A stretch of DNA of 33,816 nucleotides from a virus, in IMG/VR virus record IMGVR_UViG_3300024059_000017, positions 1 through 33,816 of that record. One strand, given 5' to 3'. Below are positions 3,101-27,825 of the stretch, piece by piece; position 1 is the stretch's first letter, and each line of letters begins with the position of its first letter. The translations under genes were made by a program, and so were the position numbers. Under the pieces are notes generated by a model. The model worked only from the letters and a program-made list of their open reading frames with translations. It did not search any database and had not been told where the DNA came from.

Positions 3101-3201
3101 ATGGCAATATGGTAGGGGTCTTGATTGAAGCTATGAAAGAACAGAACGCAAAGATTGAAAGATTGGAAGGGCTTGTTGAATTAATGTTGAAAGACAAATA
3201 G
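1..3201 (+). CDS. Giant tail fibre, C-terminal part with S74 chaperone domain (continues from the window end)
   Basis: Open from base 1 in frame 1 with no start of its own; the first in-frame ATG-like codon (25) is internal. The sequence at 33674 onward is identical and in the same frame, so this is the 3' part of the fibre that starts at 27809; joined, it would be about 3,021 residues. It is built of Gly/Thr/Ser/Asn-rich modules that recur many times: GDITGVTAGTGLSGGGTSG, a block beginning NIVQTTVSGNAGTAT, and SQTFTNKGGNISQWTN. The end carries a Peptidase_S74 intramolecular chaperone domain: SDERLKSDIK with its Ser codon at 2923-2925, then GLGVVAQEVEKVLPEVV, YGNMVGVLIEAMKEQ and a short C-terminal coiled coil. 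In this family the domain trimerises the fibre and cuts itself off just before that Ser, here releasing about 92 residues. Likely role: host recognition at the tail tip. The start is missing only because of how the circle was opened. Confidence 0.9.
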   Translation: MDSDSDFYVDADTLFTDNLEASGNVSWSGGSSQESNSAYDNMVTGFSDSGTSTKTLTLTQQDGGTLTTSFSIPQGDITGITAGTGISGGGTSGTVTITNSAPNIVQTTVSGNAGTATKLQTARTIAGVSFDGSANISLNNNAITNGAGYTTNVGDITNVTAGTNLNGGGASGSVTLNLDSAIELTSVAIGSTVTLSESGDRPDLLYINSSTSTWGGLQIGNTSDEFLFSLMGDGTQGGIYDDQNSDWILQWTENAGVQLRYDGGTRLVTTNGGVSVTGSITTSGDITVSGGDIVLGGTGRIQGIDTVSAGSDAASKDYVDTAVAGVPVGDITGVTAGSGLSGGGTSGTVTLVNTAPNIVQTTVTGNAGTATALQTARTIAGVSFDGTSNISLNNNAISNGAGYTTNTGTTTASNSQTFTNKGGNISQWTNNSGYTTNVGDITAVTAGTGLTGGGTSGGVTVNVDYAGSGNLVDGAGAGSTITTLDKILYEDNTDTTVKEIAISSLVALAPQGDITGITVGTGLSGGGTSGTVNLVNTAPNIVQTTVSGNAGSATVLQTARTIAGVSFNGSANISLNNSNITNGAGYTTATGTMSSWTIKEGNGTESTSVTNGETLTLAQGNGITSEMTSTSSGGTITITNTKPNIVQTTVSGNAGTATTLQTARTIAGVSFNGSANISLNNNAITNGAGYITSASLPTVNNSTVTVNTGTGLDGATSFTLNQSSAKTISLSLDLNELSVSGTLVGTDNLVVVDGSSSRKTQISTIPLSIFNNNSGWTSNTGTTTASNSQTFTNKGGNISQWTNNSGYTTNTGDITAVNTGTGLSGGGTSGSVTIVNTAPNIVQTTVTGSSGSCTGNAATVTNGAYTNVANNFTTTQKITESEPKLRLKSSSSPSLQAGIMTQVGGQLLGFGTNYSQIGSRDSSKVGGFFRIDTRTGYESQFFTVQRIPASGSETIIFKLSSTGDVIASGNVTAYSDERLKSDIKTIDNAMDKVNALRGVTFTKDGERGLGVVAQEVEKVLPEVVIDGDYKSVAYGNMVGVLIEAMKEQNAKIERLEGLVELMLKDK

Positions 3202-6166: not shown

Positions 6167-6204
6167 GAAAAAGGAGTTGATGTTGTGTTGGCTCTTTTTT
6201 TTTG
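6167..6204 (+). terminator. Probable rho-independent terminator after ninG
   Basis: GAGTTGAT pairs (with several G-U pairs) with GTTGGCTC around a short loop and is followed by a run of nine T. An A-run precedes the stem. The stem is weak, but the T-tract and its position between a gene end and a strong promoter support it. Confidence 0.45.
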
Positions 6205-7291: not shown

Positions 7292-7327
7292 AAGGGGTGT
7301 GGTGTAAGAATCACACCCTTTTTTTTT
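7292..7327 (+). terminator. Rho-independent terminator after ssb
   Basis: GGGTGTG (7295-7301) pairs with CACACCC (7312-7318) around a 10-nt loop, extended by A-T/G-U pairs, followed by a T-run through 7327. The next ATG is only 12 nt after the T-run. Confidence 0.85.
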
Positions 7328-12518: not shown

Positions 12519-12785
12519 ATGGATAATAGAAAAAATAACGGAGGGGTAAGGGTAGGCGCAGGCAGACCAAAAAAAGCTGATGAATTGAAGCTAATTCAAA
12601 GGCTGGACAACCTTATTGATAACGATGCGGTGATTCGGGTACTTGGTGAGCAAATACTAAAGGGCGATGCAAGGGCGTTGTCTTTGTATTTCGGTTATAG
12701 ATATGGCAAGCCAAAAGAATCCGTTGACATTACATCCAAAGAAGGATTCAATATCAATTTCCAAGACTTGATAAGATTTAAGTGA
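12519..12785 (+). CDS. terS: Terminase small subunit
   Basis: 88 residues. GGVRVGAGRPKKADELK at the N-terminus is the hallmark of many small terminases and related DNA-binding proteins, followed by a helical body (LKLIQRLDNLIDNDAVIRVL) and the motif FGYRYGKPKESVDITSKEG near the end, which is typical of this group. It recognises phage DNA for packaging and hands it to the large subunit. The ATG at 12519 follows an A-rich leader and a late-type promoter motif; its stop overlaps the GTG of terL (GTGA). Confidence 0.8.
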   Translation: MDNRKNNGGVRVGAGRPKKADELKLIQRLDNLIDNDAVIRVLGEQILKGDARALSLYFGYRYGKPKESVDITSKEGFNINFQDLIRFK

Positions 12786-13990
12786 TTGACGTAAACGAGA
12801 AGTATGCACCCATAATGTCATCGGACTCCAGATATTACATTGTTACTGGGGGGCGTGGTTCGGGTAAGTCTTACTCAATAAATCTTTTGCTTGTCTTGCT
12901 TACCTATGAGGAAGGCCACACTATTCTTTTCACCAGATTTACGCTGTCATCAGCTTACATTTCCATCATCCCAGAATTTATTGACAAGATTGAAACGCTA
13001 AACATTCAGGAGCATTTTCGTATAACAAAGGATGAAATCATCAATCGGCTTTCAGGCAGCAAGATTATCTTCAAGGGCATCAAAACATCGTCTGGTGATC
13101 AGACCGCAAACCTAAAGTCATTGACCAACGTAACCACTTGGGTTATGGACGAAGCTGAGGAACTTGTTGATGAATCCATCTTTGATAAAATAGATTTGTC
13201 TGTGCGCAACCTGAATAGACAGAATCGGGTTATTATGATTTTGAACCCAGTCACAAAAGAGCATTGGATTTACTCACGGTTCTTTGAAGATAAGGGCGTG
13301 ATGGAGTCCAGCAACACAATCAAAGACAACACCACCTACATTCACACCACATACCTTGACAACTTAGAAAACTTATCAGACAGCTATTTAAGGCAGATTG
13401 AGGATATCAAGCAACGCAGGCCAGACAAGTACAAACATCAGATGCTTGGTGGGTGGTTACAGAAAGCAGAGGGCGTTATCTTTTCCAATTGGAGGGTGGG
13501 GTCGTTTAAACGAGTGGGCGTTTCGGTCTTTGGGCAAGACTATGGTTTCGCTGCTGACCCATCAACATTGGTTGAAACTAACATTGACACCGCCAATAAG
13601 ATTATCTATTTGAAGGAGTGTTTTTTCTTAAAGGGGTTGACCACTTCGGAAATTGCTTTACTAAACTTGAAACACGCAGGCACTAACTTGATTGTGGGTG
13701 ATTCCGCAGAGCCAAGGCTTTTGTCTGAGATAAAATCAAAAGGATGCAATGTTGTAAAAGCTATCAAGGGGCAGGGGTCAATCACATATGGCATATCCTT
13801 GCTTCAGGATTATGATATGATTGTGGATGACAACAGCATCAACTTAATAAAAGAACTAAACAATTACTCTTGGCTGGAAAAGAAATCAAAGACCCCGCAA
13901 GACAACTGGAATCATTTGATTGATGCAATACGGTATTCCGTATCATATCAATTGCAAAACCCTAACCGTGGGACATATCACATATCATAA
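12782..13990 (+). CDS. terL: Terminase large subunit (PBSX-type)
   Basis: 402 residues starting at a GTG overlapping the terS stop. The ATPase part has Walker A GGRGSGKS (residues 23-30) and Walker B TWVMDEAEEL (Asp123, Glu124). The RNase H-like nuclease has Asp253 (FGQDYGFAADP), Asp307 (VGDSAEPRLL) and Asp381 (NWNHLIDAIRYSV). This is the usual length and layout of Terminase_3/Terminase_6-type subunits that cut concatemers and drive DNA into the prohead through the portal. Complete and undamaged, with a host-type promoter directly after its end. Confidence 0.93.
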   Translation: MIDVNEKYAPIMSSDSRYYIVTGGRGSGKSYSINLLLVLLTYEEGHTILFTRFTLSSAYISIIPEFIDKIETLNIQEHFRITKDEIINRLSGSKIIFKGIKTSSGDQTANLKSLTNVTTWVMDEAEELVDESIFDKIDLSVRNLNRQNRVIMILNPVTKEHWIYSRFFEDKGVMESSNTIKDNTTYIHTTYLDNLENLSDSYLRQIEDIKQRRPDKYKHQMLGGWLQKAEGVIFSNWRVGSFKRVGVSVFGQDYGFAADPSTLVETNIDTANKIIYLKECFFLKGLTTSEIALLNLKHAGTNLIVGDSAEPRLLSEIKSKGCNVVKAIKGQGSITYGISLLQDYDMIVDDNSINLIKELNNYSWLEKKSKTPQDNWNHLIDAIRYSVSYQLQNPNRGTYHIS

Positions 13991-14003
13991 CATTTGTGAA
14001 CAA

Positions 14004-14035
14004 TTTGGTTGATAACCAAGAAAGGTGTACATTGC
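14004..14035 (+). promoter_or_regulatory. Bacteroidetes-type promoter with operator-like dyad
   Basis: TTTG at 14004-14007 and TACATTGC at 14028-14035 with a 20-nt spacer; the -7 octamer is identical to that at 6236-6243. The inverted repeat TTGGTT-GAT-AACCAA (14005-14019) overlaps the -33 element and spacer, where a repressor could block polymerase. Confidence 0.7.
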
Positions 14036-14063
14036 ATTATATTTAATAACTAAAACAGAAACA

Positions 14064-14459
14064 ATGACTATTACCCAATTTAATAAAAGCAACATCAAAG
14101 CCCTAAGAGTAGACTTGAATGAAGCAATGCAATCTTTGTCCGACAAGTATGGAGTTAAGATTCACGCAGGAAACGCAAGTTTCAGTTCTAATGAAGTGAC
14201 CTTCAAGGTTCACCTAAACGTCCTAAATGAAAATGGATTGGCACTAACGAAAAAAGCAGAGCATTTTGAGTTGATGAAAGATGGGGTTGGATTAGGCCAT
14301 CTTAGCATAGGTGACTCAGTAAAATTGAGTGGTGATTCTTACATTTTAAGTGGATGGAACAATCGTGCATCTAAGTTTCAGATTGAAGTTTCCAAAAACA
14401 ATGAGAGTTACAGTTGCAGTGTTACATCGCTTTTACTACAAAACCCCAAATTATCATAA
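14064..14459 (+). CDS. Unknown protein under its own host-type promoter (131 aa)
   Basis: The ATG at 14064 follows an A-rich leader (taaaacagaaaca) 29 nt after the -7 element; the TTG at 14025 overlaps the promoter and is rejected. The protein starts with a helix (FNKSNIKALRVDLNEAMQSL) and continues with beta-like stretches (KIHAGNASFSSNEVTFKVHL, GLGHLSIGDSVKLSGD, SYILSGWNNRASKF). I recall similar small proteins in phage early regions but no function. It sits between packaging and tail genes yet has an early-type promoter with an operator-like dyad, so it may be expressed at a different time from its neighbours. Confidence 0.65.
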   Translation: MTITQFNKSNIKALRVDLNEAMQSLSDKYGVKIHAGNASFSSNEVTFKVHLNVLNENGLALTKKAEHFELMKDGVGLGHLSIGDSVKLSGDSYILSGWNNRASKFQIEVSKNNESYSCSVTSLLLQNPKLS

Positions 14460-14469
14460 TTAACAGCGT

Positions 14470-14577
14470 ATGAAAACAATAAACAAACCAATCAAGACAA
14501 TAACATTGCCAACACTGGTGAGGGTTCAACACTTTGCCGATGGAAGAATAAATGTACTGAAGCCGAAATATAGTTAA
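14470..14577 (+). CDS. Possible tiny basic peptide (35 aa)
   Basis: An ATG at 14470, ten bases after the previous stop, opens 35 codons (MKTINKPIKTITLPTLVRVQ ... KPKYS). Basic, no family recognised, no coupling. The rest of the gap to 14637 shows no convincing gene. Confidence 0.3.
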   Translation: MKTINKPIKTITLPTLVRVQHFADGRINVLKPKYS

Positions 14578-14637
14578 ACGCATAGGCTTTGTGTGTGAAA
14601 AGGATGCCTGCATAAAGAGGCTTTGCAAAATCCTTTC

Positions 14638-14668
14638 AAGGGTGGTCAGAAATGGCTGCCCTTTTTTT
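14638..14668 (+). terminator. Rho-independent terminator before the tail module
   Basis: AAGGGTGGTCA pairs with TGGCTGCCCTT (three G-U pairs) around a GAAA tetraloop, followed by a run of T to 14668. It separates the 14064 unit from the late-type promoter at 14685. Confidence 0.85.
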
Positions 14669-14684
14669 ATATTTAAGCATCACT

Positions 14685-14713
14685 ACAAAAACCCCCATTG
14701 AATACGTTATATA
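14685..14713 (+). promoter_or_regulatory. Late-type promoter motif before the tail chaperone
   Basis: ACAAA at 14685-14689 and CGTTATATA at 14705-14713, with 15 nt between. The ATG at 14719 is 14 nt after the C of CGTT, which predicts a leaderless or nearly leaderless mRNA. Confidence 0.65.
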
Positions 14714-14718
14714 GATAT

Positions 14719-15372
14719 ATGAAACTGAAAATCACAGTCCCGACATCTCTAAAGGACATTACCTTGCGGCAGTATAAACACTTCCTAAAGGTACAGGAAG
14801 ATATTACAGACGAAGCATTCTTGAATGCAAAGATGATTGAGATATTTTGCAATCTACGTCTTGATGAGGTGATGCTTTTGCATCTCAAAGACTCTTTAGA
14901 GATCACTGATGCAATTACAAAATTATTTGACGAAAAGCCTCCATTGGTTACGATGTTCAAACTGAATGGTACTGAGTACGGCTTCCAGCCTCAGCTTGAC
15001 GAGATAACTCTCGGAGAGTACATTGACCTTGATACTTTTATCTCAGACTGGGACAATATAGAGAAGGCAATGAATGTTCTCTATCGTCCTGTGCTTGTTA
15101 AATTGAAGGGCAAGTACAGCATTGACGAATACCAACTGGGTGCTGAAGCGAACATTTTGGATATGCCAATGGATGCCGTGATGTCATCAATTTTTTTTTT
15201 GTGGAATTTAGGGATAGACTTGTCACAAACTATGATGAACTCTTTGGACACCAACAATCAGACACCAGCCTTGACGGAGTATCTCAATTCTCAAGAAAGT
15301 GGGGATGGTATCAATCGCTTTACGGACTCTCTCAGGGAGATATTACAAGATTTGAAGGTGTCACTAAATTAA
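14719..15372 (+). CDS. Tail assembly chaperone, short form (gpG-like)
   Basis: 217 residues. The ATG at 14719 follows a late-type promoter motif; a TTG at 14698 lies inside that motif and is rejected. The protein is helical (TSLKDITLRQYKHFLKVQED) with a C-terminal stretch ending DGINRFTDSLREILQDLKVS, a pattern I have met in Bacteroidetes phage structural regions. Position before the tail completion and tape measure genes and the overlapping -1 frame at a T10 run match lambda G/T tail chaperones, which coat the tape measure during tail assembly. Chaperone assignment is from genomic context and the slip site, not a strong motif. Confidence 0.7.
   Translation: MKLKITVPTSLKDITLRQYKHFLKVQEDITDEAFLNAKMIEIFCNLRLDEVMLLHLKDSLEITDAITKLFDEKPPLVTMFKLNGTEYGFQPQLDEITLGEYIDLDTFISDWDNIEKAMNVLYRPVLVKLKGKYSIDEYQLGAEANILDMPMDAVMSSIFFLWNLGIDLSQTMMNSLDTNNQTPALTEYLNSQESGDGINRFTDSLREILQDLKVSLN
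15191..15200 (+). other. T10 slippery site for programmed -1 frameshift
   Basis: Ten T in a row; in the 14719 frame the codons are ATT-TTT-TTT-TTG, so T-TTT-TTT is a classical slippery heptamer. A -1 slip enters the open frame that runs to 15458. A homopolymer-length sequencing error is the main alternative. Confidence 0.65.
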
Positions 15373-15458
15373 AAATGCACGAATGTTTTATGATGCTTTC
15401 GTTTATGAAGGACAAAAACGAATTGGAGTCTAAGCAAATAAAAAATCAATTCAAATGA
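15198..15458 (+). CDS. Tail assembly chaperone, -1 frame extension (gpT-like)
   Basis: After a -1 slip the reading continues FVEFRDRLVTNYDELFGHQ and then KWGWYQSLYGLSQGDITRFE, VTKLKMHECFMMLSFMKDKN, giving a fusion of about 246 residues. The WGWYQSLYGLSQGDITRFE...TKL...E segment resembles the T-domain of frameshifted tail chaperones and Bacteroidetes phage homologues I recall. Without a slip, only the GTG at 15201, directly after the T-run, could start it. It overlaps the 0-frame by about 172 nt where both frames look coding. Its stop overlaps the next ATG (ATGA). Confidence 0.65.
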   Translation, partial: FVEFRDRLVTNYDELFGHQQSDTSLDGVSQFSRKWGWYQSLYGLSQGDITRFEGVTKLKMHECFMMLSFMKDKNELESKQIKNQFK

Positions 15459-15934
15459 GTGAACAGAATCAAGGCGTAAGGGGGTACTATCAGTTGACCC
15501 AAACAATCAAGACAGCACTGCTTGAGGACATCAACATCAATACGGTAACGACTGGGGACATTACCGATGTCAACCTAAACAAGCAAGATATCTTTCCGCT
15601 TGGTCACATCATCATCAACAACGTGATTGATACAGAGCAAACCCTAAAGTTCAACATCACCATTCTTGCCTGTGATATTGTTAACCTATCCAAAGAGCCA
15701 ACGGTTGACCGATTTACAGGGAACAATGACGTACAGAATATCTTGAACACACAACTGGCAGTCCTCAATAAGCTGATTCAAAAACTAAGAATGGGCAACC
15801 TTTTCACTGATATGTACCAGCTTGACAGTGCGCCTTCTTTAGAGCCGTTCTATGACAGATTTGAGAACCAATTGGCAGGGTGGTCAGCCACGATGGACAT
15901 CTTGATATACAATGACATTTGGGTTTGCGACTGA
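15455..15934 (+). CDS. Tail terminator/completion-like protein
   Basis: 159 residues, ATGA overlap at its start. The pattern GYYQLTQTIKTALLEDININ, FPLGHIIINNVIDTEQTLKF and a long helix (NILNTQLAVLNKLIQKLRMG) ending in LAGWSATMDILIYNDIWVCD fits small tail-completion proteins that sit on the end of the tail tube (gpU or minor tail protein type). The place between tail chaperone and gp10-like gene supports a tail-end role. I know similar proteins from Bacteroidetes phages only as hypothetical. Confidence 0.6.
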   Translation: MSEQNQGVRGYYQLTQTIKTALLEDININTVTTGDITDVNLNKQDIFPLGHIIINNVIDTEQTLKFNITILACDIVNLSKEPTVDRFTGNNDVQNILNTQLAVLNKLIQKLRMGNLFTDMYQLDSAPSLEPFYDRFENQLAGWSATMDILIYNDIWVCD

Positions 15935-16497
15935 TGGAGTTTCCTAAATTAGATGCCGTCATCAATAAGTACGCTAAGTATGTGGTTCAGCAAGCCAAGT
16001 CCAACTTGACAAAAGCCAAGAAGGGTGGTGGGCCATTGTATGAATCCATCGCATATAAAATAACAAAAGAGGGGTCAACGGCATATCTTATTTCTTTTTT
16101 AATGGAGAACTATGGCCTTTTTGTAGATGAGGGAGTACAGGGCGCAAATCCCAGTTTGGTAAATAGTTCAAAAACTGGAAGGGTGGGAATACAAAAAGCC
16201 CCATTAAGCAAATTCAAATACACCAGCAAAATGCCACCGATGCAAATGCTTGCGGATTGGGCAAAGAGCAAAAATGTGAGATTCAGGGTTGGAAAAGGTC
16301 AGAAGGGTGGCGGTCAGTTTAAGGCTGGCAGCTATCAATCAATGGGCTTTTGGTTGCAGAAAAGTATTTACGCACAAGGAATGGAACCCACATACTTTTT
16401 CTCCAAACCATTCAACAACGGTCAATTTGATTTGTCGGAAAATATGCTTGATGCCTTTGTACAAGATATTGATGACCTATTAAGTTCTAAAAAATAA
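15934..16497 (+). CDS. HK97 gp10-like neck/tail-completion protein
   Basis: 187 residues from the ATG at 15934 (TGATG overlap); the TTG at 15919 is rejected. The features KYAKYVVQQAKSNLTKAKK, GPLYESIAYKITKEG, YGLFVDEGVQG and the C-terminal FFSKPF...NMLDAFVQDIDD follow the HK97_gp10-like scheme: an N-terminal helix, a central Y..FVE.G motif and a C-terminal helix. Such proteins join head and tail or close the tail. A Gly/Lys-rich insert (VRFRVGKGQKGGGQFKAG) is unusual for the family and could touch DNA. Confidence 0.6.
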   Translation: MEFPKLDAVINKYAKYVVQQAKSNLTKAKKGGGPLYESIAYKITKEGSTAYLISFLMENYGLFVDEGVQGANPSLVNSSKTGRVGIQKAPLSKFKYTSKMPPMQMLADWAKSKNVRFRVGKGQKGGGQFKAGSYQSMGFWLQKSIYAQGMEPTYFFSKPFNNGQFDLSENMLDAFVQDIDDLLSSKK

Positions 16498-16500
16498 ACA

Positions 16501-17520
16501 ATGCCAACTAACTACGCCCTACGCACTCCCATTTTTGCTCAAGCAACTTCAACACTTGCTACCACGCAATCTGCAAAGCTGCTTCTATACAATAGCGGCT
16601 CGCTTATTTACACCATCATAAAAAGTGCCACGCAAAATGTTCCAGTAATCTTTGAGGTGGCCGAATTGCTGAGAGATTACCTAACCATATCTTTTCCCGA
16701 AGACCCGACAACACCATATAACACACAATCAATCACCTTCACTTCTACTATCACATTCTATGATGGCCCAAATGGAACTGGTCTGTCCGAAGGTGCTGTC
16801 ACCACTATTGGTGGCGATGGATGGGAAGCCTATGGTCTTTTTGTAGAAGGGACTAACCCAGTGATTCCGTTTGAAAACAGAGTGAAGCCCACTTGGTTAT
16901 TGGCAGAGGCAAATCCAACAACAGCTTCGTTGACGGATGATTTTAATATCTATGTCCCAAGCGGTGTTGAAGGTTATGTGCCCTACATCAACACAACAGG
17001 AACAATTGAATACTTTTCTTACAACGGAACAGACACGGAGTTGGAACAAGACAGCATCACTTGCACCATTAACAGAATTGATTGCACTAAATACGGAGAG
17101 GGCAACAAGGTTACTTTCATAAACAAATACGGTGTGCTGCAAGACCTGTGGTTCTTCTTGAAGAATGTCAAGTCAATAACACGAACAAATGAAACGTATC
17201 AAGCCAACACACTAAGCGCAACGGCTACCTACTCTCAGTCGGATGCAACCTATAAGCTATTCAACACGAAGGCAAAGCAAAGCCGTACATTATCTTCAGG
17301 CTACTACCCTGAGTACACCAATGCTTATTTTGAGGAATTGCTTTTGAGCGAGTATGTTTGGATGACAAGGCCACAAGTAGACCAGCCCAACATTGACGAG
17401 ATTGTCCCTGTCACTGTAAAGACATCCAATATGACTTACAAGACTTCGGTTAATGATCGGTTGATTGAGTACACTATTGAGTTTGAGGATGCGTTTGATT
17501 ACATTAACAATGTCCGATAG
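16501..17520 (+). CDS. Tail structural protein (339 aa)
   Basis: Starts at an ATG three bases after the previous stop. Largely beta-rich with many Thr, Ser and aromatic residues; the piece KYGVLQDLWFFLKNVKSITR and the end RLIEYTIEFEDAFDYINNVR are patterns I have seen in Bacteroidetes phage virion proteins. No catalytic motif or membrane segment. Its stop overlaps the GTG of the next large structural gene (TAGTG), so both are made in a coupled way. A minor tail or baseplate-like component is the best guess from position before the tape measure. Confidence 0.6.
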   Translation: MPTNYALRTPIFAQATSTLATTQSAKLLLYNSGSLIYTIIKSATQNVPVIFEVAELLRDYLTISFPEDPTTPYNTQSITFTSTITFYDGPNGTGLSEGAVTTIGGDGWEAYGLFVEGTNPVIPFENRVKPTWLLAEANPTTASLTDDFNIYVPSGVEGYVPYINTTGTIEYFSYNGTDTELEQDSITCTINRIDCTKYGEGNKVTFINKYGVLQDLWFFLKNVKSITRTNETYQANTLSATATYSQSDATYKLFNTKAKQSRTLSSGYYPEYTNAYFEELLLSEYVWMTRPQVDQPNIDEIVPVTVKTSNMTYKTSVNDRLIEYTIEFEDAFDYINNVR

Positions 17521-19643
17521 TGCAAGAGTTACAGCTATATATTGAAAGTGATAGACTGGACTTGTTTAAAGACGAGGCTGTTTCTATTACGCAAACAATC
17601 CAAAACGTAAAAGACCCTGCAAAGATTTTCACATCTTTCACGCAGACCTTTTCTGTGCCTGCAAGTTCAAACAATAACAAGATATTCCAGCACTATTACA
17701 ACTACAATATTACTGGGGGTTATGATGCAAGAACAAAGAAGGCGGGAAGGATAGAGCTAAATACTATTCCTTTCAAAACTGGAAGGATAAAACTTGAGGG
17801 GGTTAGTTTGAAGAATAACCTTGCCCACACTTATCGCATCACCTTTTTTGGAAACACCGTTGAATTGCCAGACATCATTGGGGATGACAAACTGGGTTCG
17901 TTGCCGTTTAGCGAAGCCCAGTACAATCTGACTTATGATGCCGACACCATCAAGGAGAAGATGGAAATTGCATCGGGGGTTGGGGCGCATATCATCACGC
18001 CATTAATCACTCACACACAAGCACTTTTCTACAACTCCGCATCGTCCACACATAATTATGCAGGCAACTTGTATTGGCATAATGCAAGCGGAACAAATGG
18101 CGTGGACTGGAATGAGTTGAAATATGCTTTGCGGCTGTACGAAATACTTGAACAGATTGAAGCCAAGTACACCACAGCAAATGACTATGCCAGCAACATA
18201 GCTTTCTCCACTGATTTTTTCAACACCACAAATCCTACGTTCTACAACCTGTATATGTGGTTGCATCGTAAAAGTGGGGATGTTGAGCCTGCATCGCAAG
18301 TGACATCTTTTCAAACTTTGATTGCTGGGTATTCGGGAACGGTGAGTAACATCGTGGTAGGAAATTCTACGATAACAATCCCAGCCAATTTAGTCACATT
18401 TCCCAATCGCATTGTATCAGCAGAAGTGGAAGTACAGAATCCTTCGGGAACAGCTTGCTCTGTCATTGTAAATCTAAACGGAAGCCCTATTGTAACTTCT
18501 CCCTTTGTTGCTGGTGACCAAACCATTACTGTCCCTTCAATGGTTGCCAATGGTATTTACAGCGTAACAATCCAACACGAAGAAGAAGTTGACCAACTTG
18601 ATGACGTTATCTGGACTATTGATGGTATCGTTTCAGGTTCATCTTACACCGACACCGTAAACGTAGGGGCAAAGATTCTCGCACCAACCTTTGATTTCAT
18701 TGTTAGTCAGCAAATCCCTGAGATTTCCATAATGTCATTCCTTACTGGATTGTTCAAGATGTTCAACTTGGTTGCATATGTCAATGATGACGGATTGATA
18801 GTTGTAAGACCGTTGGAAGCCACATCGGGAGTGAACTATAGTTATCTAACTTCAGCAGATGTTAGTGGTTTAGATGCGCCCATTGATTACGAAATATCCA
18901 AGTATGTGGATGTAACTGAACGTGCGGTCAATATTGCTTTGCCTTACAAGGAAGTCATTTATGCTTATGAAGGAACAGGGACATATTTTGCCAAGCAGCA
19001 CAATCAGTTATTCAGTGCCAACTGGGGGGCCTTGAGGTACATTGGAGGAACTGAAGCTACTGGAACTGGCGGCATTAATTACAACGCATCAACGGAAGTT
19101 TACAAAGTCCTTGTGCCATTTGAGCATCAGAAATATGAGAGGATGGTTAACCGCAATGGCGGAGCAAGTACAACCATTCAATGGGGGTGGTCAGTTAATG
19201 AAAACCAACAGGCGTATGTAGGCAAGCCTTTGATTTTTTACGCTGTAAAGCAAAGCACAGGCACGACAGCCATAGCATTTCAAGAAGATGTCAATGAAAC
19301 CGATTCAGTTAGTAATTATTGGATTCCATCAAACAGCCTTTACTTAGACCCAGCAACAGGCAAGCAGAACATCAACTTTGGTGCTGAGTTGAATGAATAT
19401 GATGATGGCTCTGATGAGTTTACAGACACCTTGTTTTCAGTATATCACAGCGAATACATCATTGATGTCTTTAATGAAAGGAGAAGAATCACACAGTTAA
19501 CTTCTTATTTACCCCTGCGAATCATTTACAACTTTAAGCTAAATGACACATTCACCATCAATGCAGAAACTTATCTAATCAACTCCATCACGACTGATTT
19601 GCAAAGTGGCAAAAGCAAGATGGAATTACTCAATCAAGTATGA
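17520..19643 (+). CDS. Large tail structural protein (707 aa)
   Basis: Starts at a GTG overlapping the upstream stop (TAGTG). The N-terminus has a pattern I recognise from Bacteroidetes phage tail proteins: QLYIESDRLDLFKDEAVSIT, then FTSFTQTFSVPASSNNNKIF, FQHYYNYNITGGYDARTKKA and RIELNTIPFKTGRIKLEG, ending in long beta-rich parts. The C-terminus (YLPLRIIYNFKLNDTFTING-like YNFKLNDTFTINAETYLINS) resembles tail-tip hub or baseplate-type segments. Because of its size and location before the tape measure, a tail-tip or baseplate hub role is plausible but unproven. It is coupled to a 46-codon gene by ATGA. Confidence 0.65.
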   Translation: MQELQLYIESDRLDLFKDEAVSITQTIQNVKDPAKIFTSFTQTFSVPASSNNNKIFQHYYNYNITGGYDARTKKAGRIELNTIPFKTGRIKLEGVSLKNNLAHTYRITFFGNTVELPDIIGDDKLGSLPFSEAQYNLTYDADTIKEKMEIASGVGAHIITPLITHTQALFYNSASSTHNYAGNLYWHNASGTNGVDWNELKYALRLYEILEQIEAKYTTANDYASNIAFSTDFFNTTNPTFYNLYMWLHRKSGDVEPASQVTSFQTLIAGYSGTVSNIVVGNSTITIPANLVTFPNRIVSAEVEVQNPSGTACSVIVNLNGSPIVTSPFVAGDQTITVPSMVANGIYSVTIQHEEEVDQLDDVIWTIDGIVSGSSYTDTVNVGAKILAPTFDFIVSQQIPEISIMSFLTGLFKMFNLVAYVNDDGLIVVRPLEATSGVNYSYLTSADVSGLDAPIDYEISKYVDVTERAVNIALPYKEVIYAYEGTGTYFAKQHNQLFSANWGALRYIGGTEATGTGGINYNASTEVYKVLVPFEHQKYERMVNRNGGASTTIQWGWSVNENQQAYVGKPLIFYAVKQSTGTTAIAFQEDVNETDSVSNYWIPSNSLYLDPATGKQNINFGAELNEYDDGSDEFTDTLFSVYHSEYIIDVFNERRRITQLTSYLPLRIIYNFKLNDTFTINAETYLINSITTDLQSGKSKMELLNQV

Positions 19644-19780
19644 TCAAGAATATCATAGACTTGCTACAATTAGCAAAAGGAGAATCTGAAAACATCAGAA
19701 TTGCACAAGGCAAAAATGCCCTGCCAACAGACTTGAAGTCAGGAATGAAACTATTAAAAAGAACAATAAAATGGCAGTAA
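19640..19780 (+). CDS. Tiny coupled protein before tape measure (46 aa)
   Basis: ATGA overlap with the previous stop (19640-19643), and its end (ATGGCAGTAA) overlaps the tape measure start by 10 nt. Product begins MIKNIIDLLQLAKGESENIR and ends in a basic LLKRTIKWQ. No family recognised. The double coupling suggests it sets translation of the tape measure. Confidence 0.6.
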   Translation: MIKNIIDLLQLAKGESENIRIAQGKNALPTDLKSGMKLLKRTIKWQ

Positions 19781-21717
19781 CAAACGAATACACCTTAAAG
19801 ATTTCCGTCAAACAAGCGCAAGCAAATGTTGATGAACTCAACAAATCACTTGCCGCACAAAAAGACCTTATCAAAGACCTTACTGATGAGGTAAGTGACT
19901 ATGAGGACAAGTTGGGCAAGATGGATTCAAGGGATAAGAATCGCATCAAGAAAACTGAGGAACTCATTGCGGTCACTAAAAAACAGTTGACGGAAGAAAA
20001 GGCAGGATTGAAGGCGGTCAATGCAGATAGAAAAGTTGCAAACACTCAACTCAAGGAAGCCAAGAAAAACCAAGCAGACTTTGGCGGCATAATGGGTTAT
20101 GTAGATAAGCAGACAGGCGGTGCTGTTTCTGGGATGAAAAAGTTTGTTAGCAGCATAGGGAAGGCAACCAAAGGTATGAAGTTGCTTAAAGTTGCAATCG
20201 TTGCCACAGGCATTGGTGCTTTGTTGATTGCTCTCACTTCATTGGTAGCCGTCTTTAAGCAAAGCGAAGAAGGCCAAGAAAAGATGCAAGTGGGGCTGGC
20301 TAAAGTTGGTGCTGTGGTGAAGCAAGTGATGGACTTGTTTTCTGACTTAGGAGCGGCAATAATTGATGCTGTGACAAACCCAATGAAATCAGTTGAGAAA
20401 TTGGGCAATGGCATTACTAAATTTATGGCAAGCCCTTGGGACTATGTAAAAAACACCATCAAGGGTGCTACCAAAGCGGTGAAAGACTTTGCTGAGGAAA
20501 CAAATAAAGAGATTGACCAAATAGGAAAAATCACTAAGGCAAGGCAAAAAGCACATCACATTGAAAGGGATTTGATGGTTGAACGTGCAAAAGCCAACAG
20601 AGAGATCAATGACATCAGGCTACAGGCAGAAGATAGGGTCAATAATACTGCAACGGAAAGGGTTGCCTTATTAAGAAAAGCGCAAAAGATTGAAGAAGGA
20701 ATAACACAAAAACAAATTTCTGCCAAAAAATTATTAGTCAAGGCCCAGATTGCTGAGATGGCTCAGGGCAAAAACACTATTGAAGAAAAAGATAAACTTG
20801 CCAAGATGCAAGCTGAGTTGATTAACCTTGACACAAGAAAACTAAGAAGCCAAAGGCTGTTACAGACACAAATCACAACTGCACTTAATGAAGAAGCAGC
20901 AATCAAGAAAGAAGCAAAGGATAAAGCAGATGCGGAAATTGCTGCTGACCAAAAGAAAGTAAGCGATAAGATTGATGAGGATAAAGAAATTGAAAGGCAA
21001 CGATTGCAAGACCTTGAAGATTTAAGGAGAGATTTCTATACAAGAAGAAGGCTGGAACAAGCTGCGAGCCTTGAAGAAGAAATGACATTGCGTATGCAGA
21101 TTGCAATGAGTGAGATAAAAGCTACGGAGGACAATTTTCAACTTCGGGCCGATATGCAGGATGCTTGGGATGCGAAAATAACGGAGGCAAGGGACAAAGA
21201 TGCAGCCAACGCCAAAGCCCTTGACCAATCTGTGTTGAATGCTAAACTGGATGCTGCTGCACAGGCATTTGCTATAGTAGGTGCGATGTCAGAGAAAGGC
21301 AGCAAGTTGGCAAAAGCAATGGCAATCGGCCAAGCTACTATTGCTGGATTCCAAAGTGTGCAAAATGCTTTCACAACTGCCTCGTTAAGCCCCCTCACCA
21401 CCGTATGGCCAGCCTATCCATTCGTACAAGCTGGGTTGGCAGGCGGGTTTGCTGCTGCTAACATTCGCAATATCGCAGCCACAGACGAAAGTGGCGGTGG
21501 CCCTAAGCCCGATGCAAGCCCAACAGCCCCAACGGTAGCACCTCCGCCAAATCCTGCTAACTTTAACACAGTTGGAGCAAGCGGAACAAACCAATTGGCA
21601 GATGCCATAGGTGGTCAGGCTCAAAAGCCTTCAAGGGCATATGTTGTAAGCACAGATGTAACGTCAGCACAAAGCCTTGACAGAAACATTATCTCAGGGG
21701 CAACAATAGGAGGGTAA
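19771..21717 (+). CDS. Tape measure protein
   Basis: 648 residues, the longest helical protein in the window. Coiled-coil parts occupy about residues 10-100 and 230-500 (many A/K/E/Q heptads), with one hydrophobic segment at about 145-165 (LKVAIVATGIGALLIALTSL) of the type that enters the host membrane, and a Pro/Ala-rich C-terminal linker (DASPTAPTVAPPPNPANF) followed by RAYVVSTDVTSAQSLDRNII, a conserved-looking ending. Such proteins set tail length; with the usual ~1.5 A per residue, a tail near 95-100 nm is expected. The gp14719-type chaperone should act on it. The ATG at 19771 overlaps the tiny upstream gene. Confidence 0.85.
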   Translation: MAVTNEYTLKISVKQAQANVDELNKSLAAQKDLIKDLTDEVSDYEDKLGKMDSRDKNRIKKTEELIAVTKKQLTEEKAGLKAVNADRKVANTQLKEAKKNQADFGGIMGYVDKQTGGAVSGMKKFVSSIGKATKGMKLLKVAIVATGIGALLIALTSLVAVFKQSEEGQEKMQVGLAKVGAVVKQVMDLFSDLGAAIIDAVTNPMKSVEKLGNGITKFMASPWDYVKNTIKGATKAVKDFAEETNKEIDQIGKITKARQKAHHIERDLMVERAKANREINDIRLQAEDRVNNTATERVALLRKAQKIEEGITQKQISAKKLLVKAQIAEMAQGKNTIEEKDKLAKMQAELINLDTRKLRSQRLLQTQITTALNEEAAIKKEAKDKADAEIAADQKKVSDKIDEDKEIERQRLQDLEDLRRDFYTRRRLEQAASLEEEMTLRMQIAMSEIKATEDNFQLRADMQDAWDAKITEARDKDAANAKALDQSVLNAKLDAAAQAFAIVGAMSEKGSKLAKAMAIGQATIAGFQSVQNAFTTASLSPLTTVWPAYPFVQAGLAGGFAAANIRNIAATDESGGGPKPDASPTAPTVAPPPNPANFNTVGASGTNQLADAIGGQAQKPSRAYVVSTDVTSAQSLDRNIISGATIGG

Positions 21718-21720
21718 TTC

Positions 21721-21749
21721 ACAAAATCACAAATTGAATACGTTATATA
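21721..21749 (+). promoter_or_regulatory. Late-type promoter motif before the prohead protease
   Basis: ACAAA at 21721-21725 and CGTTATATA at 21741-21749, with 15 nt between; the ATG at 21753 is 12 nt after CGTT begins. Lies in the 35-nt gap after the tape measure stop. Confidence 0.65.
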
Positions 21750-21752
21750 CAT

Positions 21753-22355
21753 ATGAGAATCGTAGAACTTATACTTGACGAGGAACAAGAAGATACTGGA
21801 ATTGAAGCAATTTCAATCGTTGAAAGCCCTGCCATTGAGTCGGACTTTGTTGCTTTGGCAGCAGAAGAAATCAAACTTGCGGAGGTTGACAAAGAAAAGA
21901 AAATCCTTCTGGGGGCTTTACTAATTCCGAATAAACCAATATACAGGGCTGGGGCTGAAGGAGAGTATTACATCTTCTTTTCAAAAGATACCGTTGCAAA
22001 GGCATCTCAGATGTATTTGAGAAACGGCTATCAAAACAACTCAACACTTGAACACGACAAGGCACTTGATGGATTGACATTAGTTGAAAGCTGGATTGTT
22101 GAGGATGAGGTGCAAGACAAGTCACGCAAATACGGTCTGAATGTTCCTGTTGGAACGTGGATGGGTGCTGTTAAAGTTAACAATCAAAAAATTTGGGATG
22201 AATATATTTTGGAGGGTAAATGCAAGGGCTTCAGTATTGAGGGATATTTCGCTGACAAGATGGAGAAGTCTAAAGTCGTGGATGATGAAAATCTATCAGA
22301 GGATGAGAAACTGCTGAACAAGATTAAAAATATCTTGACCAGTGAGGCAGAATAA
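21753..22355 (+). CDS. Prohead protease, XkdF-like serine protease
   Basis: 200 residues. Motifs GALLIPNKPIYRA, YYIFFSKDTVAKASQMYLRN, STLEHDKALDG (His101), LVESWIVEDE, VGTWMGAVKV and KGFSIEGYF (Ser161) match the putative phage serine protease XkdF family (HK97-fold type prohead protease). The His-Ser pair would cleave scaffold and capsid precursors during head maturation; the next genes are a scaffold-like protein and the major capsid protein. A late-type promoter motif sits directly before its ATG. The C-terminus (SEDEKLLNKIKNILTSEAE) is helical and acidic and may target it to the scaffold. Confidence 0.85.
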   Translation: MRIVELILDEEQEDTGIEAISIVESPAIESDFVALAAEEIKLAEVDKEKKILLGALLIPNKPIYRAGAEGEYYIFFSKDTVAKASQMYLRNGYQNNSTLEHDKALDGLTLVESWIVEDEVQDKSRKYGLNVPVGTWMGAVKVNNQKIWDEYILEGKCKGFSIEGYFADKMEKSKVVDDENLSEDEKLLNKIKNILTSEAE

Positions 22356-22369
22356 CAAAGACAAAAATA

Positions 22370-22487
22370 GAGTGTTCATTCAAAGTAGAACCTCACCAAC
22401 AGGAAGCGACAGGGCTTGCTTGTGTTGGGACACGAACACTTATTCTAAGTCCTGTTGCGATGGCTCAATGAGTGCGCAAGGCATCGG
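22370..22487 (+). ncRNA. Candidate structured RNA element before the scaffold gene
   Basis: This 118-nt piece of a 192-nt gap (22356-22547) has several complementary segments: CAACAGG (22397-22403) with CCTGTTG (22451-22457), AAGC/GCTT (22404-22407/22414-22417), GTGTT/AACAC (22422-22426/22435-22439) forming a three-way junction, and CGATG/CATCG (22458-22462/22482-22486). An alternative pairing (GAGTGTTC with GAACACTT) also exists, so it might switch folds. It does not fit a tRNA: the span inside the acceptor-like stem is too short. Function unknown; it lies on the + strand upstream of a late-type promoter. Confidence 0.35.
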
Positions 22488-22513
22488 AGTCATAACAAGA
22501 GCAGATTGAAAAT

Positions 22514-22542
22514 ACAAAATCCATCACCTAATACGTTATATA
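22514..22542 (+). promoter_or_regulatory. Late-type promoter motif before the scaffold gene
   Basis: ACAAA at 22514-22518 and CGTTATATA at 22534-22542, 15 nt between; ATG at 22548, 14 nt after CGTT begins. Confidence 0.65.
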
Positions 22543-22547
22543 AAAGT

Positions 22548-23177
22548 ATGAAATCAAAAGAAATGTTAAACCAAATCAAGACCCTTCTAAACATCGAGGT
22601 GAAACTTGAGGAAATGAAGTTGGAAAACGGCACTGTTGTTACAGCAGAAGACTTTTCTGAAGGCAAAGAAATTTTCATAGTCACTGATGACGAGAAGGTC
22701 GCAATGCCAGTTGGTGAATACCTACTTGAAGATGGCCGCTTATTGGTCGTAACTGAGGAAGGTATGATTGCCGATGTCCGTGAGGTTTCTGATGAAGTTC
22801 CTGAAAAGGAAGAAGAAATCACTTCTGACTTAGAGGAAGGCGAAGAAAAGTCGGAAGATGAGTCGGAAGATAAGTCTGCCGATGTAGGTGACTGGGAAGG
22901 AATGGAGAAGCGGATTCAAAATCTTGAAGATGCTATTGCTGACCTAAAAGGTGACAAGGAATCTAAGATGGAAGATGTACAGGAGGAAGAAATGTCTGAT
23001 GAAGCACAACAGCCATTGAAGTCCAGAACTGTCAAGGAAGAATTTGCTGAAGCAGCAGCCGAACCTATTAAACACAATCCCGAAGCTAAAGCTGAACAGG
23101 CAACCAAGAGAGAATTTGGCAAGGGTAAATTCAACACCACCTCTCTTGAAAGAGTACTTTCAAAACTAAATAAATAA
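22548..23177 (+). CDS. Scaffold-like protein
   Basis: 209 residues from ATG 22548; the in-frame ATG at 22455 is rejected because it would run through the structured element and the promoter motif. The N-terminus is beta/helix mixed (LNQIKTLLNIEVKLEEMKLE, GTVVTAEDFSEGKEIFIV), the middle is extremely acidic (EEEITSDLEEGEEKSEDESE), then a coiled coil (MEKRIQNLEDAIADLKGDK) and a basic end (KREFGKGKFNTTSLERVLSK). This architecture and the place between protease and major capsid gene are typical of internal scaffolding proteins that shape the prohead and are removed by the protease. No direct family recognised; function from context. Confidence 0.75.
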   Translation: MKSKEMLNQIKTLLNIEVKLEEMKLENGTVVTAEDFSEGKEIFIVTDDEKVAMPVGEYLLEDGRLLVVTEEGMIADVREVSDEVPEKEEEITSDLEEGEEKSEDESEDKSADVGDWEGMEKRIQNLEDAIADLKGDKESKMEDVQEEEMSDEAQQPLKSRTVKEEFAEAAAEPIKHNPEAKAEQATKREFGKGKFNTTSLERVLSKLNK

Positions 23178-23181
23178 AAAG

Positions 23182-24162
23182 ATGAGTAATTCAAAAAAAG
23201 TAGACTTAGCAACCGTCACTGCGATCACGACCACTTATGCGGGCGAATTTGCAGGCGATTATATAGCGGCATCACTTCTTTCAGCTTCCACTATTGATGA
23301 TGGTGGTCTAACGGTAAAGGCAAACATCTCCTTCAAGGAGGTAATTAAGAAACTTGCTACAAGCAGTTTAGTTGCATCCGCTTCTTGTGACTTCACGCCT
23401 ACCAGCACTGTCACTCTAACTGAGCGCATCATTCAGCCAGTTGAACTTCAGGTCAACCTACAATTGTGTAAGTATGATTTCGTTAACGATTGGGAAAGTC
23501 AGTCAATGGGCTACGGTCTTGGTCAGACGATGCCTCCTAAGTTCTCCGACTTTATGTTGGCCCACGTTGCAGCGGAAGTTGCCCAGAACACGGAGCAAAA
23601 TATCTGGAGAGGGGACACCGCAGCTGGTTCAGTTAATTCCTTTGATGGTTTTGAGAAGCTAATCGCAGCCTCCGCAGCCGCAGGTGATATTCCAGCAGCA
23701 CAACAAGTAGCTGCCGTTGCTGGTGGTTTGGATGCCACTAATATCATTGCTGAGATGTCTAAAGTAGTTGATGCAATTCCTGCTTCTCTTTATGGCAAAG
23801 AAGACTTGTTCCTTTATGTAGGTTCTGCCGCAGCTAAGTTCTACGTTCAAGCACTTGGCGGTTTTGCTGCTTCTGGTCTTGGTGCTAATGGTGTAAATTC
23901 ACAAGGAACGCAATGGTGGAATAACGGAAGCCTATCGGTCAACGGAGTGAAAATCTTTGTTTGCCCAGGTATGTCTGCTGACAAGATGTATGCCGCAGAA
24001 CGCAGCAATCTTTACTTCGGTACTGGTCTTCTAAACAGCACCAACGAAGTTAAGTTGTTGGATATGGCGGATTTGGATGCTTCTAACAATGTGAGAATCG
24101 TGATGCGTTTCACCAGTGCTGTCCAATTTGGCATCGCTTCGGATATCTGTGAGTACGCTTAA
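23182..24162 (+). CDS. Major capsid protein (HK97-fold candidate)
   Basis: 326 residues, ATG four bases after the scaffold stop with an A-rich leader. The sequence MSNSKKVDLATVTAITTTYA, ADYIA-like GDYIAASLLSASTIDDGGLT, then WESQSMGYGLGQTMPPKFSD, EQNIWRGDT, FLYVGSAAAKFYVQAL and CPGMSADKMYAAERSNLYFG matches, as I recall them, the capsid proteins of Bacteroidetes phages (W.G and YAAERSNL-type motifs before the terminal beta strands). It forms the icosahedral shell with the portal. It is followed by a strong terminator, so it likely ends the head transcription unit and is highly expressed. Confidence 0.85.
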   Translation: MSNSKKVDLATVTAITTTYAGEFAGDYIAASLLSASTIDDGGLTVKANISFKEVIKKLATSSLVASASCDFTPTSTVTLTERIIQPVELQVNLQLCKYDFVNDWESQSMGYGLGQTMPPKFSDFMLAHVAAEVAQNTEQNIWRGDTAAGSVNSFDGFEKLIAASAAAGDIPAAQQVAAVAGGLDATNIIAEMSKVVDAIPASLYGKEDLFLYVGSAAAKFYVQALGGFAASGLGANGVNSQGTQWWNNGSLSVNGVKIFVCPGMSADKMYAAERSNLYFGTGLLNSTNEVKLLDMADLDASNNVRIVMRFTSAVQFGIASDICEYA

Positions 24163-24180
24163 TTGCATAATAACAACACA

Positions 24181-24220
24181 AGGGGTAAGTGGGTATTGAC
24201 TTACTTGCCCCTTTTTTTTT
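24181..24220 (+). terminator. Strong rho-independent terminator after the major capsid gene
   Basis: AGGGGTAAGTGGGT (24181-24194) pairs over 14 positions (three G-U) with ACTTACTTGCCCCT (24199-24212) around ATTG, followed by a T-run to 24220. Confidence 0.92.
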
Positions 24221-24237
24221 AATACAAATACAAAAAT

Positions 24238-24777
24238 ATGGCTTGCTTACTAACTACTGGACGGAAAGTCCCCTGCAAAAGTGCCTTTGGAGGCATTAAA
24301 ACAGTTTATTTTGCTGACTACGGTTCTCTAACCGCTATTGCAATTGATGCTACCACCAAAGAAGCTACCACTACTGGCTCGGCAACTTGGTACGAATACG
24401 ATGTGAAAGGAAATTCCTCTCTTGAAACTACTGTGACAAGCAGCAGGGAGAATGGGACTACCTTTTATACGCAATCGTTGAACTTGACCTTGACGTTCCT
24501 TGATGCTCAGACACAGGACGAATTACAAACCCTTGCAGTTGCTCGCCCATACATTGTGGTTGAGGACTATTATGGAAACAGCTTCCTTTGTGGTTATGAA
24601 AACGGAATGGAATGCACAGGCGGTACTGTTGTAACAGGCGCAGCCGCTGGTGACCTTTCTGGATTCACACTTACATTTGAAGGAATGGAAGAAGCTGCTC
24701 CATTCTTCTTGGCCGCAGCCGTCACAGGTGATGCTACTCAAATTGACCCAACGGCAACTGCCCCACCAGCCCCTTGA
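24238..24777 (+). CDS. Probable major tail (tube) protein
   Basis: 179 residues, ATG at 24238 after the A-rich leader 'aaatacaaaaat'. The N-terminus MACLLTTGRKVPCKSAFGGI and a beta-rich body (WYEYDVKGNSSLETTVTSSR, FYTQSLNLTLTFLDAQTQDE) end in GAAAGDLSGFTLTFEGMEE, the GDLSG(F/Y)TLTF.G.E motif typical of tube proteins, then a Thr/Pro-rich tail (DATQIDPTATAPPAP). It is flanked by two strong terminators (24181-24220 and 24803-24831), which suits a very abundant structural protein with its own message, although no promoter could be identified between the first terminator and its ATG. Tube assignment is probable, not proven; a head decoration protein is the alternative. Confidence 0.65.
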   Translation: MACLLTTGRKVPCKSAFGGIKTVYFADYGSLTAIAIDATTKEATTTGSATWYEYDVKGNSSLETTVTSSRENGTTFYTQSLNLTLTFLDAQTQDELQTLAVARPYIVVEDYYGNSFLCGYENGMECTGGTVVTGAAAGDLSGFTLTFEGMEEAAPFFLAAAVTGDATQIDPTATAPPAP

Positions 24778-24802
24778 TAAATTTGTGTTTTAGTTAAAAA
24801 TC

Positions 24803-24831
24803 AAGCCTCCTTAATCGGGGGCTTTTTTTTT
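24803..24831 (+). terminator. Rho-independent terminator after the 24238 gene
   Basis: AAGCCTCC (24803-24810) pairs with GGGGGCTT (24817-24824), one G-U, around TTAATC, followed by a T-run to 24831. Confidence 0.9.
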
Positions 24832-24845
24832 GGATAGGCCATTCT

Positions 24846-24874
24846 ACAAATTGCCTTGATTTGTGCGTTATATA
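24846..24874 (+). promoter_or_regulatory. Late-type promoter motif before the portal operon
   Basis: ACAAA at 24846-24850 and CGTTATATA at 24866-24874 (preceded by TG instead of TA), 15 nt between; ATG at 24880, 14 nt after CGTT begins. It lies directly after the terminator at 24803, as expected for a separate unit. Confidence 0.65.
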
Positions 24875-24879
24875 AGAGT

Positions 24880-25371
24880 ATGATAATTCTCACCACAACG
24901 GCTGCGGCTCAAACCCTTTCGGTCATTCCGAGGGAATATGACAATAGTGAGTTTGCAATGTCTATTAGAGATGACCAAACTAATGTGGAAGTGGTCTACA
25001 ATTCTAACACAGGCGTAACAAATGGAAACTATCTACAATTCAGCAAGGCGTTCTTTCCTGTATTGGTTGAAGGTCATTTTTTTGATTTGCGACTTTATAT
25101 TGACTCGGACACTTGGCAAACCAATAGCAATTTTTGGAATATGTATGACGTTATTTGGAATTTAGCAGCCGACCACATCAATGACATCTTTCGTGATAAG
25201 ATTTTTTGTACCGACCAAACTATAGACGAGTCGGAAAATGACTACTACAAATTGGATGAAGGCCAATATGTTGAATATGATGGTTACATAAATAATGAAA
25301 CGCTTGACGAAGGCGTACCTGAAACTTACATTGAATACAACGGTTCGGATAATACTTATACAGTACGATGA
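24880..25371 (+). CDS. Virion structural protein upstream of portal (163 aa)
   Basis: The ATG at 24880 is chosen; an in-frame TTG at 24856 is upstream of the promoter motif and is rejected. The N-terminus MIILTTTAAAQTLSVIPREY is a pattern I know from Bacteroidetes phage structural genes of unknown function. The rest is beta-rich with several acidic Tyr repeats (KLDEGQYVEYDGY, TYIEYNGSDNTYT). It ends in an ATGA overlap with the portal gene, so it is translated together with it; a head-completion or portal-associated role is plausible from position only. Confidence 0.6.
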   Translation: MIILTTTAAAQTLSVIPREYDNSEFAMSIRDDQTNVEVVYNSNTGVTNGNYLQFSKAFFPVLVEGHFFDLRLYIDSDTWQTNSNFWNMYDVIWNLAADHINDIFRDKIFCTDQTIDESENDYYKLDEGQYVEYDGYINNETLDEGVPETYIEYNGSDNTYTVR

Positions 25372-27718: not shown

Positions 27719-27825
27719 AGAAGGAATATAAGGTTAAGAAGGTCAACATTGAGAAATTGAAAGCCTTTATCAGAAAAAATAAGAACAAAAAAATCAAAAA
27801 GCGCACCAATGGCAACTCTATTTAA
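27706..27825 (+). CDS. Possible tiny basic protein linking connector and fibre genes (39 aa)
   Basis: The ATG at 27706 lies inside the end of the connector gene and the stop lies inside the start of the fibre gene (27809), so all three frames overlap. The product is very Lys-rich (MGSVKKEYKVKKVNIEKLKA, then KNKKIKKRTNGNSI). It fills an otherwise empty 90-nt gap. No family assigned; the continuous overlap supports translation. Confidence 0.5.
   Translation: MGSVKKEYKVKKVNIEKLKAFIRKNKNKKIKKRTNGNSI

What the first reader, a model, noticed from the sequence alone, without database searches (positions are those of the whole stretch)
15191..15458. T10 slippery run and dual-frame coding in a tail chaperone
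A run of ten T sits in frame as T-TTT-TTT, and the -1 frame opened there carries a well-ordered WGWYQSLYGLSQGDITRFE region, whereas the 0-frame continues 57 more codons with its own conserved-looking ending. For about 172 nt both frames appear to code. This differs from the lambda G/GT design, in which the short form ends soon after the slip site.
Basis: partly seen in the sequence, partly recalled or inferred. Interest (0 to 1): 0.65.

Follow-up and report, generated by a model that had tools for sequence, protein, structure and literature searches.

The report
Poly-T frameshift in phage tail chaperone
A run of ten Ts inside a phage gene is kept in every relative examined because it lets one gene make two proteins with different ends, and for about 170 bases the DNA is read usefully in two frames at once; this is a variant of the frameshift other phages use to build their tails.

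Summary
T10 lies at 15191-15200, in frame as AT(T TTT TTT) TTG. The 0-frame runs on to a stop at 15372, and the -1 frame carries a conserved ~86-residue domain to 15458. At least 313 distinct related sites (IMG/VR contigs, the cultured Nonlabens phages P12024L/S, Bacteroidota MAGs and a prophage, down to ~22% identity) all keep a 9-12 T run containing in-frame T TTT TTT, with the same -1 domain behind it; none is shorter than 9. In the window's clade both frames of the overlap are under purifying selection (pN/pS 0.60 and 0.50, against 1.2-2.6 for the silent frame of flanking single-coding DNA). No start codon in the -1 frame is conserved, and many relatives have a -1-frame stop 2-8 nt upstream of the run. 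Best reading: programmed -1 recoding makes a 217-aa short form and a 246-aa long form, probably the tail assembly chaperone pair of a Bacteroidota siphophage. Whether ribosome or RNA polymerase slips cannot be settled from sequence: 9 T is also the usual threshold for transcriptional slippage, and no stimulatory RNA structure or Shine-Dalgarno element is present. New variant of the lambda G/GT and P2 E/E+E' kind. Chaperone identity is inferred.

The parts
14638..14670 (+). intrinsic-terminator-like hairpin plus T-run just upstream of the gene
   Evidence: consensus match only
14719..15372 (+). 0-frame gene (short form, 217 aa; probable tail assembly chaperone, G-like)
   Evidence: all 19 diverse members match phrog_32199; AlphaFold2 model pLDDT 80
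15191..15200 (+). T10 slip run; in-frame heptamers T TTT TTT (15192-15198) and T TTT TTG (15195-15201)
   Evidence: run of 9-12 T in every one of at least 313 distinct relatives
15198..15458 (+). -1 frame coding region, 86 codons plus stop, fused to the 0-frame N-terminal part in the 246-aa long form (T-like domain)
   Evidence: pN/pS 0.18 beyond the 0-frame stop; relatives match phrog_38404
15201..15372 (+). 172-nt stretch coding in both frames
   Evidence: pN/pS 0.60 (0-frame) and 0.50 (-1) with suppressed synonymous change in both
15455..15934 (+). next gene; its ATG overlaps the -1 stop (ATGA), so long-form ribosomes end on its start codon
   Evidence: ATGA seen in 81 of 123 clade members

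Best explanation
The gene is decoded in two ways from one start. Most ribosomes read 14719-15372 and make a 217-aa protein. A minority product shifts to the -1 frame at the T10 run and continues to 15458, giving a 246-aa protein whose first ~160 residues are the same and whose last ~86 come from the other frame. Most likely the shift is tandem -1 ribosomal slippage of two Phe-tRNAs on U UUU UUU (or Phe/Leu on U UUU UUG), as in P2 E/E+E', without a stimulatory RNA element. The pair most likely acts as the tail assembly chaperones (G-like short form, GT-like long form) of a Bacteroidota siphophage. Shown by sequence: the conserved run, the -1 domain, selection on both frames of the overlap, absence of a conserved second start. 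Inferred: that both proteins are made, their ratio, ribosome rather than polymerase as the slipping machine, and the chaperone function. Separate estimates: recoding at the run 0.95, chaperone function 0.75, ribosomal rather than transcriptional slippage about 0.6.
For: All 224 loci of the first set (155 distinct) have in-frame T TTT TTT, with TTT at both Phe codons in 155/155 although 34% of Phe codons in the same genes are TTC, and NNT before them in 155/155. Later sets add more distinct sites, all with a 9-10 T run and a -1 offset, plus a distant chromosomal prophage with GTT TTT TTT TGT. When flanking codons change, the run is kept in another register: ATC/ATA TTT TTT TTT TGG, CGG TTT TTT TTT GCT, ATG TTT TTT TTT CTG. 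The -1 domain is under purifying selection (pN/pS 0.18 downstream; 0.50, CI 0.44-0.57, in the overlap) and so is the 0-frame tail (0.60, CI 0.54-0.66), against 2.55 and 1.22 in single-coding controls; the synonymous rate falls in both frames (p 8e-11 and 9e-9). A -1-frame stop lies 2 nt upstream of the run in some relatives and 8 nt upstream in 56 of 66 members of another clade, so entry must occur at the run. Context: after TerL and ahead of the tape measure gene. Structural neighbours of the 0-frame model include proteins named tail assembly chaperone, weakly (E 0.016). Six single proteins of 226-258 aa in other viral records match both the 0-frame and the -1 models, as expected if the fusion is a real protein.
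Against: No expression data. No named family hit: Pfam empty for both parts, PHROG families of unknown function. The gene is four genes away from the tape measure gene rather than directly before it. No downstream RNA structure (mean z 0.25 to 0.76) and no SD-like element, so nothing positive points to the ribosome; T9 is also the commonest threshold reported for transcriptional slippage (PMC1088944). The -1 domain model is low confidence (pLDDT 65). The single-ORF fusions may be sequencing homopolymer errors; their DNA could not be examined.
Confidence: 0.6

Rival explanations
1. Transcriptional slippage: RNA polymerase slips on the T9-T12 run and inserts one U in part of the mRNAs, so standard translation then yields the same 246-aa long form; the chaperone ratio is set by the polymerase.
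For: Run never under 9 in at least 313 distinct sites although a ribosomal heptamer needs 7; 9 is the length at which selection against A/T runs appears in many bacterial genomes (PMC1088944); no ribosomal stimulator found; only A/T run of 8 or more inside a likely gene of this window.
Against: Any in-frame T TTT TTT flanked by the residues found here ([VIL]FF[YWLFC]) automatically gives 9 or more T, and any run of 9 contains an in-frame T TTT TTT, so the floor does not discriminate. The described phage tail-gene cases are treated as ribosomal (PMC5009743, PMC3091744).
Confidence: 0.33
2. Two separate overlapping genes: the -1 ORF is started independently (for example GTG at 15201) or by reinitiation, with no shift.
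For: GTG follows the run in most of the window clade; Nonlabens annotators start the second gene at an ATG.
Against: GTG becomes CTG, TTG or TTA in relatives; the 0-frame Leu is never TTA, which would create an ATG start, although TTA is the commonest Leu codon; -1 coding conservation begins at the run itself; this would not explain the invariant T run.
Confidence: 0.04
3. Sequencing or assembly error, or decay of a once continuous gene.
For: Homopolymers are error-prone.
Against: Same length in independent assemblies and a run in cultured phages; both frames selected.
Confidence: 0.01
4. Real recoding, but the protein is another tail or neck assembly factor rather than a G/GT-type chaperone.
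For: No sequence family or solved fold identifies it; it is not adjacent to the tape measure gene.
Against: Tail-module position, two-isoform architecture, weak phrog_166 'tail protein' and tail-chaperone structural matches.
Confidence: 0.22

Closest known systems
Phage P2 E / E+E' tail gene frameshift (TTTTTTG; 91 and 142 aa)
   Same: poly-T slip site followed by G, -1 shift, no downstream RNA structure, E' overlapping the start of the next gene (PMC3091744, PMC3931495)
   Different: P2 has 6 T and E' reaches only 37 nt back into E; here 9-12 T and, in this clade, ~170 nt coding in both frames; no sequence similarity was found to any named tail family
Phage lambda G / GT tail assembly chaperones
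   Same: two products sharing an N-terminus, long form made by a -1 shift (PMC5009743)
   Different: lambda's shift is near the 3' end of g, with little 0-frame left; here the short form keeps a selected tail of ~57 residues, and the gene is not next to the tape measure gene
Transcriptional slippage genes (Thermus dnaX A9, Shigella mxiE)
   Same: homopolymer of 9 or more A/T at the frame switch (dnaX: PMC1088944; mxiE run length from my own knowledge)
   Different: no RNA evidence here; phage tail gene
Nonlabens phages P12024L/S genes 40/41 (S: 38/39)
   Same: homologous, T9 run, -1 KWGWY or KWSWY domain
   Different: annotated as two hypothetical proteins; 0-frame tail only ~25 codons

Membership tests
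G/GT-type tail assembly chaperone pair | two overlapping ORFs with a slip site and a conserved downstream domain in the -1 frame | tested here: met
G/GT-type tail assembly chaperone pair | located between the major tail protein and tape measure genes, directly before the latter | tested here: inconclusive
   in the tail block before the tape measure gene (19771) but four genes lie between; no major tail protein could be assigned by family search
G/GT-type tail assembly chaperone pair | fold of known tail assembly chaperones | tested here: inconclusive
   only weak matches: BFVD chaperone-named E 0.016, PDB best Z 2.8
G/GT-type tail assembly chaperone pair | short form binds tape measure protein, long form binds major tail protein; unequal ratio | not testable with these tools
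   needs experiment
-1 programmed ribosomal frameshift | in-frame X XXY YYZ heptamer | tested here: met
   T TTT TTT in 224/224 loci of the first set
-1 programmed ribosomal frameshift | stimulatory structure or SD-like element (optional; not a requirement in phage tail genes) | tested here: inconclusive
   none detected; also absent in P2 (PMC3091744), and pseudoknots were not modelled
Transcriptional slippage site | homopolymer of 9 or more A/T | tested here: met
   9-12 T in every site
Transcriptional slippage site | mRNA heterogeneous in run length | not testable with these tools
   no RNA data

The most novel reading that the evidence does not exclude
In this group of aquatic Bacteroidota phages the two tail-chaperone isoforms are produced by RNA polymerase slipping on a T9-T12 run rather than by ribosomal frameshifting, with the short form's own tail kept by selection in a ~170-nt dual-coding stretch; the ratio of tail assembly proteins would be set by the polymerase.
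Probability: 0.33. Interest if true: 0.72.

Novelty: new variant of a known kind. Interest (0 to 1): 0.48.

Why it matters
A widespread group of marine and freshwater phages has this gene split into two families of unknown function (phrog_32199 and phrog_38404), apparently because the frame switch was not recognised; joining them allows correct annotation. The invariant run of 9 or more T is a clean natural test of whether phages can use transcriptional instead of ribosomal slippage to set the ratio of assembly proteins. The long overlap, selected in both frames, asks what the short form's tail does.

Tried and rejected
Independent start and sequencing error rejected (see rivals). Searched for stimulatory RNA structure in 45, 80 and 120 nt windows for 60 relatives: none. 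Searched for SD-like sequences upstream: none. Tried to find relatives with another slip heptamer or a shorter run by several viral queries, one genome-contig scan and order or phylum searches: none found; the scans with the fused profile A4 returned nothing, even in G007 where the split gene is present, so they are uninformative. A viral scan with the distant prophage protein found nothing. Tried to get natural in-frame fusions as DNA: only seen as BFVD models. PDB fold comparison of the 0-frame model gave no clear match. Run length could not separate ribosomal from transcriptional slippage, because any run of 9 contains an in-frame T TTT TTT.

Full report
What is there. The window is an IMG/VR viral record of 33,816 bases. 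At 15191-15200 there are ten T. The 0-frame ORF, with ATG at 14719, crosses the run as ATT TTT TTT TTG TGG and stops at 15370-15372, 217 aa. The -1 frame is open from 15147 and stops at 15456-15458; after the run it reads FVEFRDRLVTNYDELFG...KWGWYQSLYGLSQGDITRFE...ESKQIKNQFK. A -1 shift in the run gives a protein of 246 aa. The -1 stop overlaps the ATG of the next gene (ATGA), as in 81 of 123 relatives of the clade.

Conservation of the run. Homology searches with the 0-frame and -1 proteins gave 157 loci, all encoding both, all in -1 offset. A query from the cultured Nonlabens phage P12024L added freshwater and marine relatives down to 25% identity, and all 224 loci then in hand (155 distinct) have an in-frame T TTT TTT in a run of 9, 10 or 12. 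Further clades reached through MAG contigs (several in Bacteroidota) and through the -1 domain alone added sets of 60, 66 and 71 distinct sequences (the sets overlap somewhat), all with 9-10 T (13 loci failed the motif filter, but one search found no exception among all loci from L229 on). A distant prophage in a bacterial genome keeps GTT TTT TTT TGT. A strict pooled count gives 313 distinct sites: 225 with T9, 87 with T10, one with T12, none shorter (that filter missed 24 loci, most of them already examined). Both Phe codons are TTT in 155 of 155 though 34% of Phe codons in the same genes are TTC, and the preceding codon always ends in T. When flanking codons lose T, others gain them: ATC or ATA TTT TTT TTT TGG, CGG TTT TTT TTT GCT, ATG TTT TTT TTT CTG.

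Both frames code. With 54 independent sequence pairs of the window clade, pN/pS in the overlap is 0.60 (0-frame, 95% CI 0.54-0.66) and 0.50 (-1, 0.44-0.57). Controls from the same genes are 2.55 for the silent -1 frame upstream and 1.22 for the silent 0-frame downstream. The synonymous rate drops from 0.54 to 0.19 in the 0-frame and from 0.45 to 0.20 in the -1 frame (p 8e-11 and 9e-9; larger pair set). Resampling codons while keeping one protein leaves the other frame open in about 1% of draws or fewer on average. Caveats: Nei-Gojobori counts are not a formal overlapping-frame model, and in one other clade (L231-L310) the 0-frame tail shows 0.93 against a control of 0.92, so its tail is not demonstrably selected there. 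The 0-frame tail ranges from about 15 to 85 codons between clades; in the AlphaFold2 model its last ~30 residues are mostly below pLDDT 50.

How the second frame is entered. A -1-frame stop lies 2 nt upstream of the run in some relatives and 8 nt upstream in 56 of 66 members of another clade. No start codon is conserved after the run: GTG in most of this clade, CTG, TTG or TTA in others. The conserved part of the -1 protein begins at the run (FFLSFR). Entry therefore occurs at the run itself. Two machines could do it. Ribosomal -1 slipping needs the heptamer present everywhere; there is no downstream structure (mean z +0.25 to +0.76) and no SD-like element; absence of structure is also reported for P2 (PMC3091744). 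RNA polymerase slipping needs about 9 A/T, also present everywhere (PMC1088944). The two are not separable from sequence, because any run of 9 contains an in-frame T TTT TTT and the surrounding residues [VIL]FF[YWLFC] make any such heptamer a run of 9 or more. I favour the ribosome at about 0.6, by precedent only.

What the proteins are. The gene follows TerL (12782-13990), with one small ORF between, and precedes the tape measure gene (19771-21717, phrog_339) in the tail block; protease and portal lie downstream, with a probable capsid gene (position only) between them. It matches no Pfam family; the 0-frame part is phrog_32199 and the -1 part, in relatives, phrog_38404, both of unknown function. 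The 0-frame model's viral neighbours are mostly unnamed; those named tail assembly chaperone are weak (E 0.016 and above). Six single viral proteins of 226-258 aa match both the 0-frame model and the -1 model, which suggests the fusion is a real protein, though homopolymer errors in long reads could also create such ORFs. Function as G/GT-type chaperones is therefore an inference from architecture and context.

Relation to known systems. The closest are P2 E/E+E' (T6G, 37-nt overlap; PMC3931495) and lambda G/GT (PMC5009743). Here the run is longer and never under 9, and in this clade the short form keeps a selected tail of ~57 residues over ~170 nt of dual coding. This is a new variant of a known kind. 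The held literature was searched for an earlier description in Bacteroidota phages and none was found, but that library lacks most subscription papers.

Noticed in passing
window 6195-6203, 7319-7327, 24212-24220, 24823-24831: Four T9 runs on the + strand between genes or just upstream of likely start codons, about 0.1 runs of 9 or more expected by an order-2 Markov model; possibly promoter or terminator elements.
   Followed up: partly
window 14638-14670: Intrinsic-terminator-like hairpin plus T run directly before the chaperone gene, suggesting that the tail block starts a new transcription unit.
   Followed up: no
window 12782-27200: Unusual order of structural genes: TerL, chaperone, tail genes and tape measure come before protease, probable capsid gene and portal.
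   Followed up: no
window 25-3201 and about 27800-33816: Long repetitive ORF at the start of the window (many GTGLSGGGTSG / NIVQTTVSGNAG-type repeats), with similar repeat-rich sequence near the other end of the window; probably one tail fibre-like gene cut by the ends of the record.
   Followed up: no
L404 (IMGVR_UViG_3300007640_000020): A contig of exactly the window's length (33,816) carries a homologue of the -1 domain; the 3.2 kb held shares no 25-mer with the window, so the equal length looks like coincidence.
   Followed up: yes
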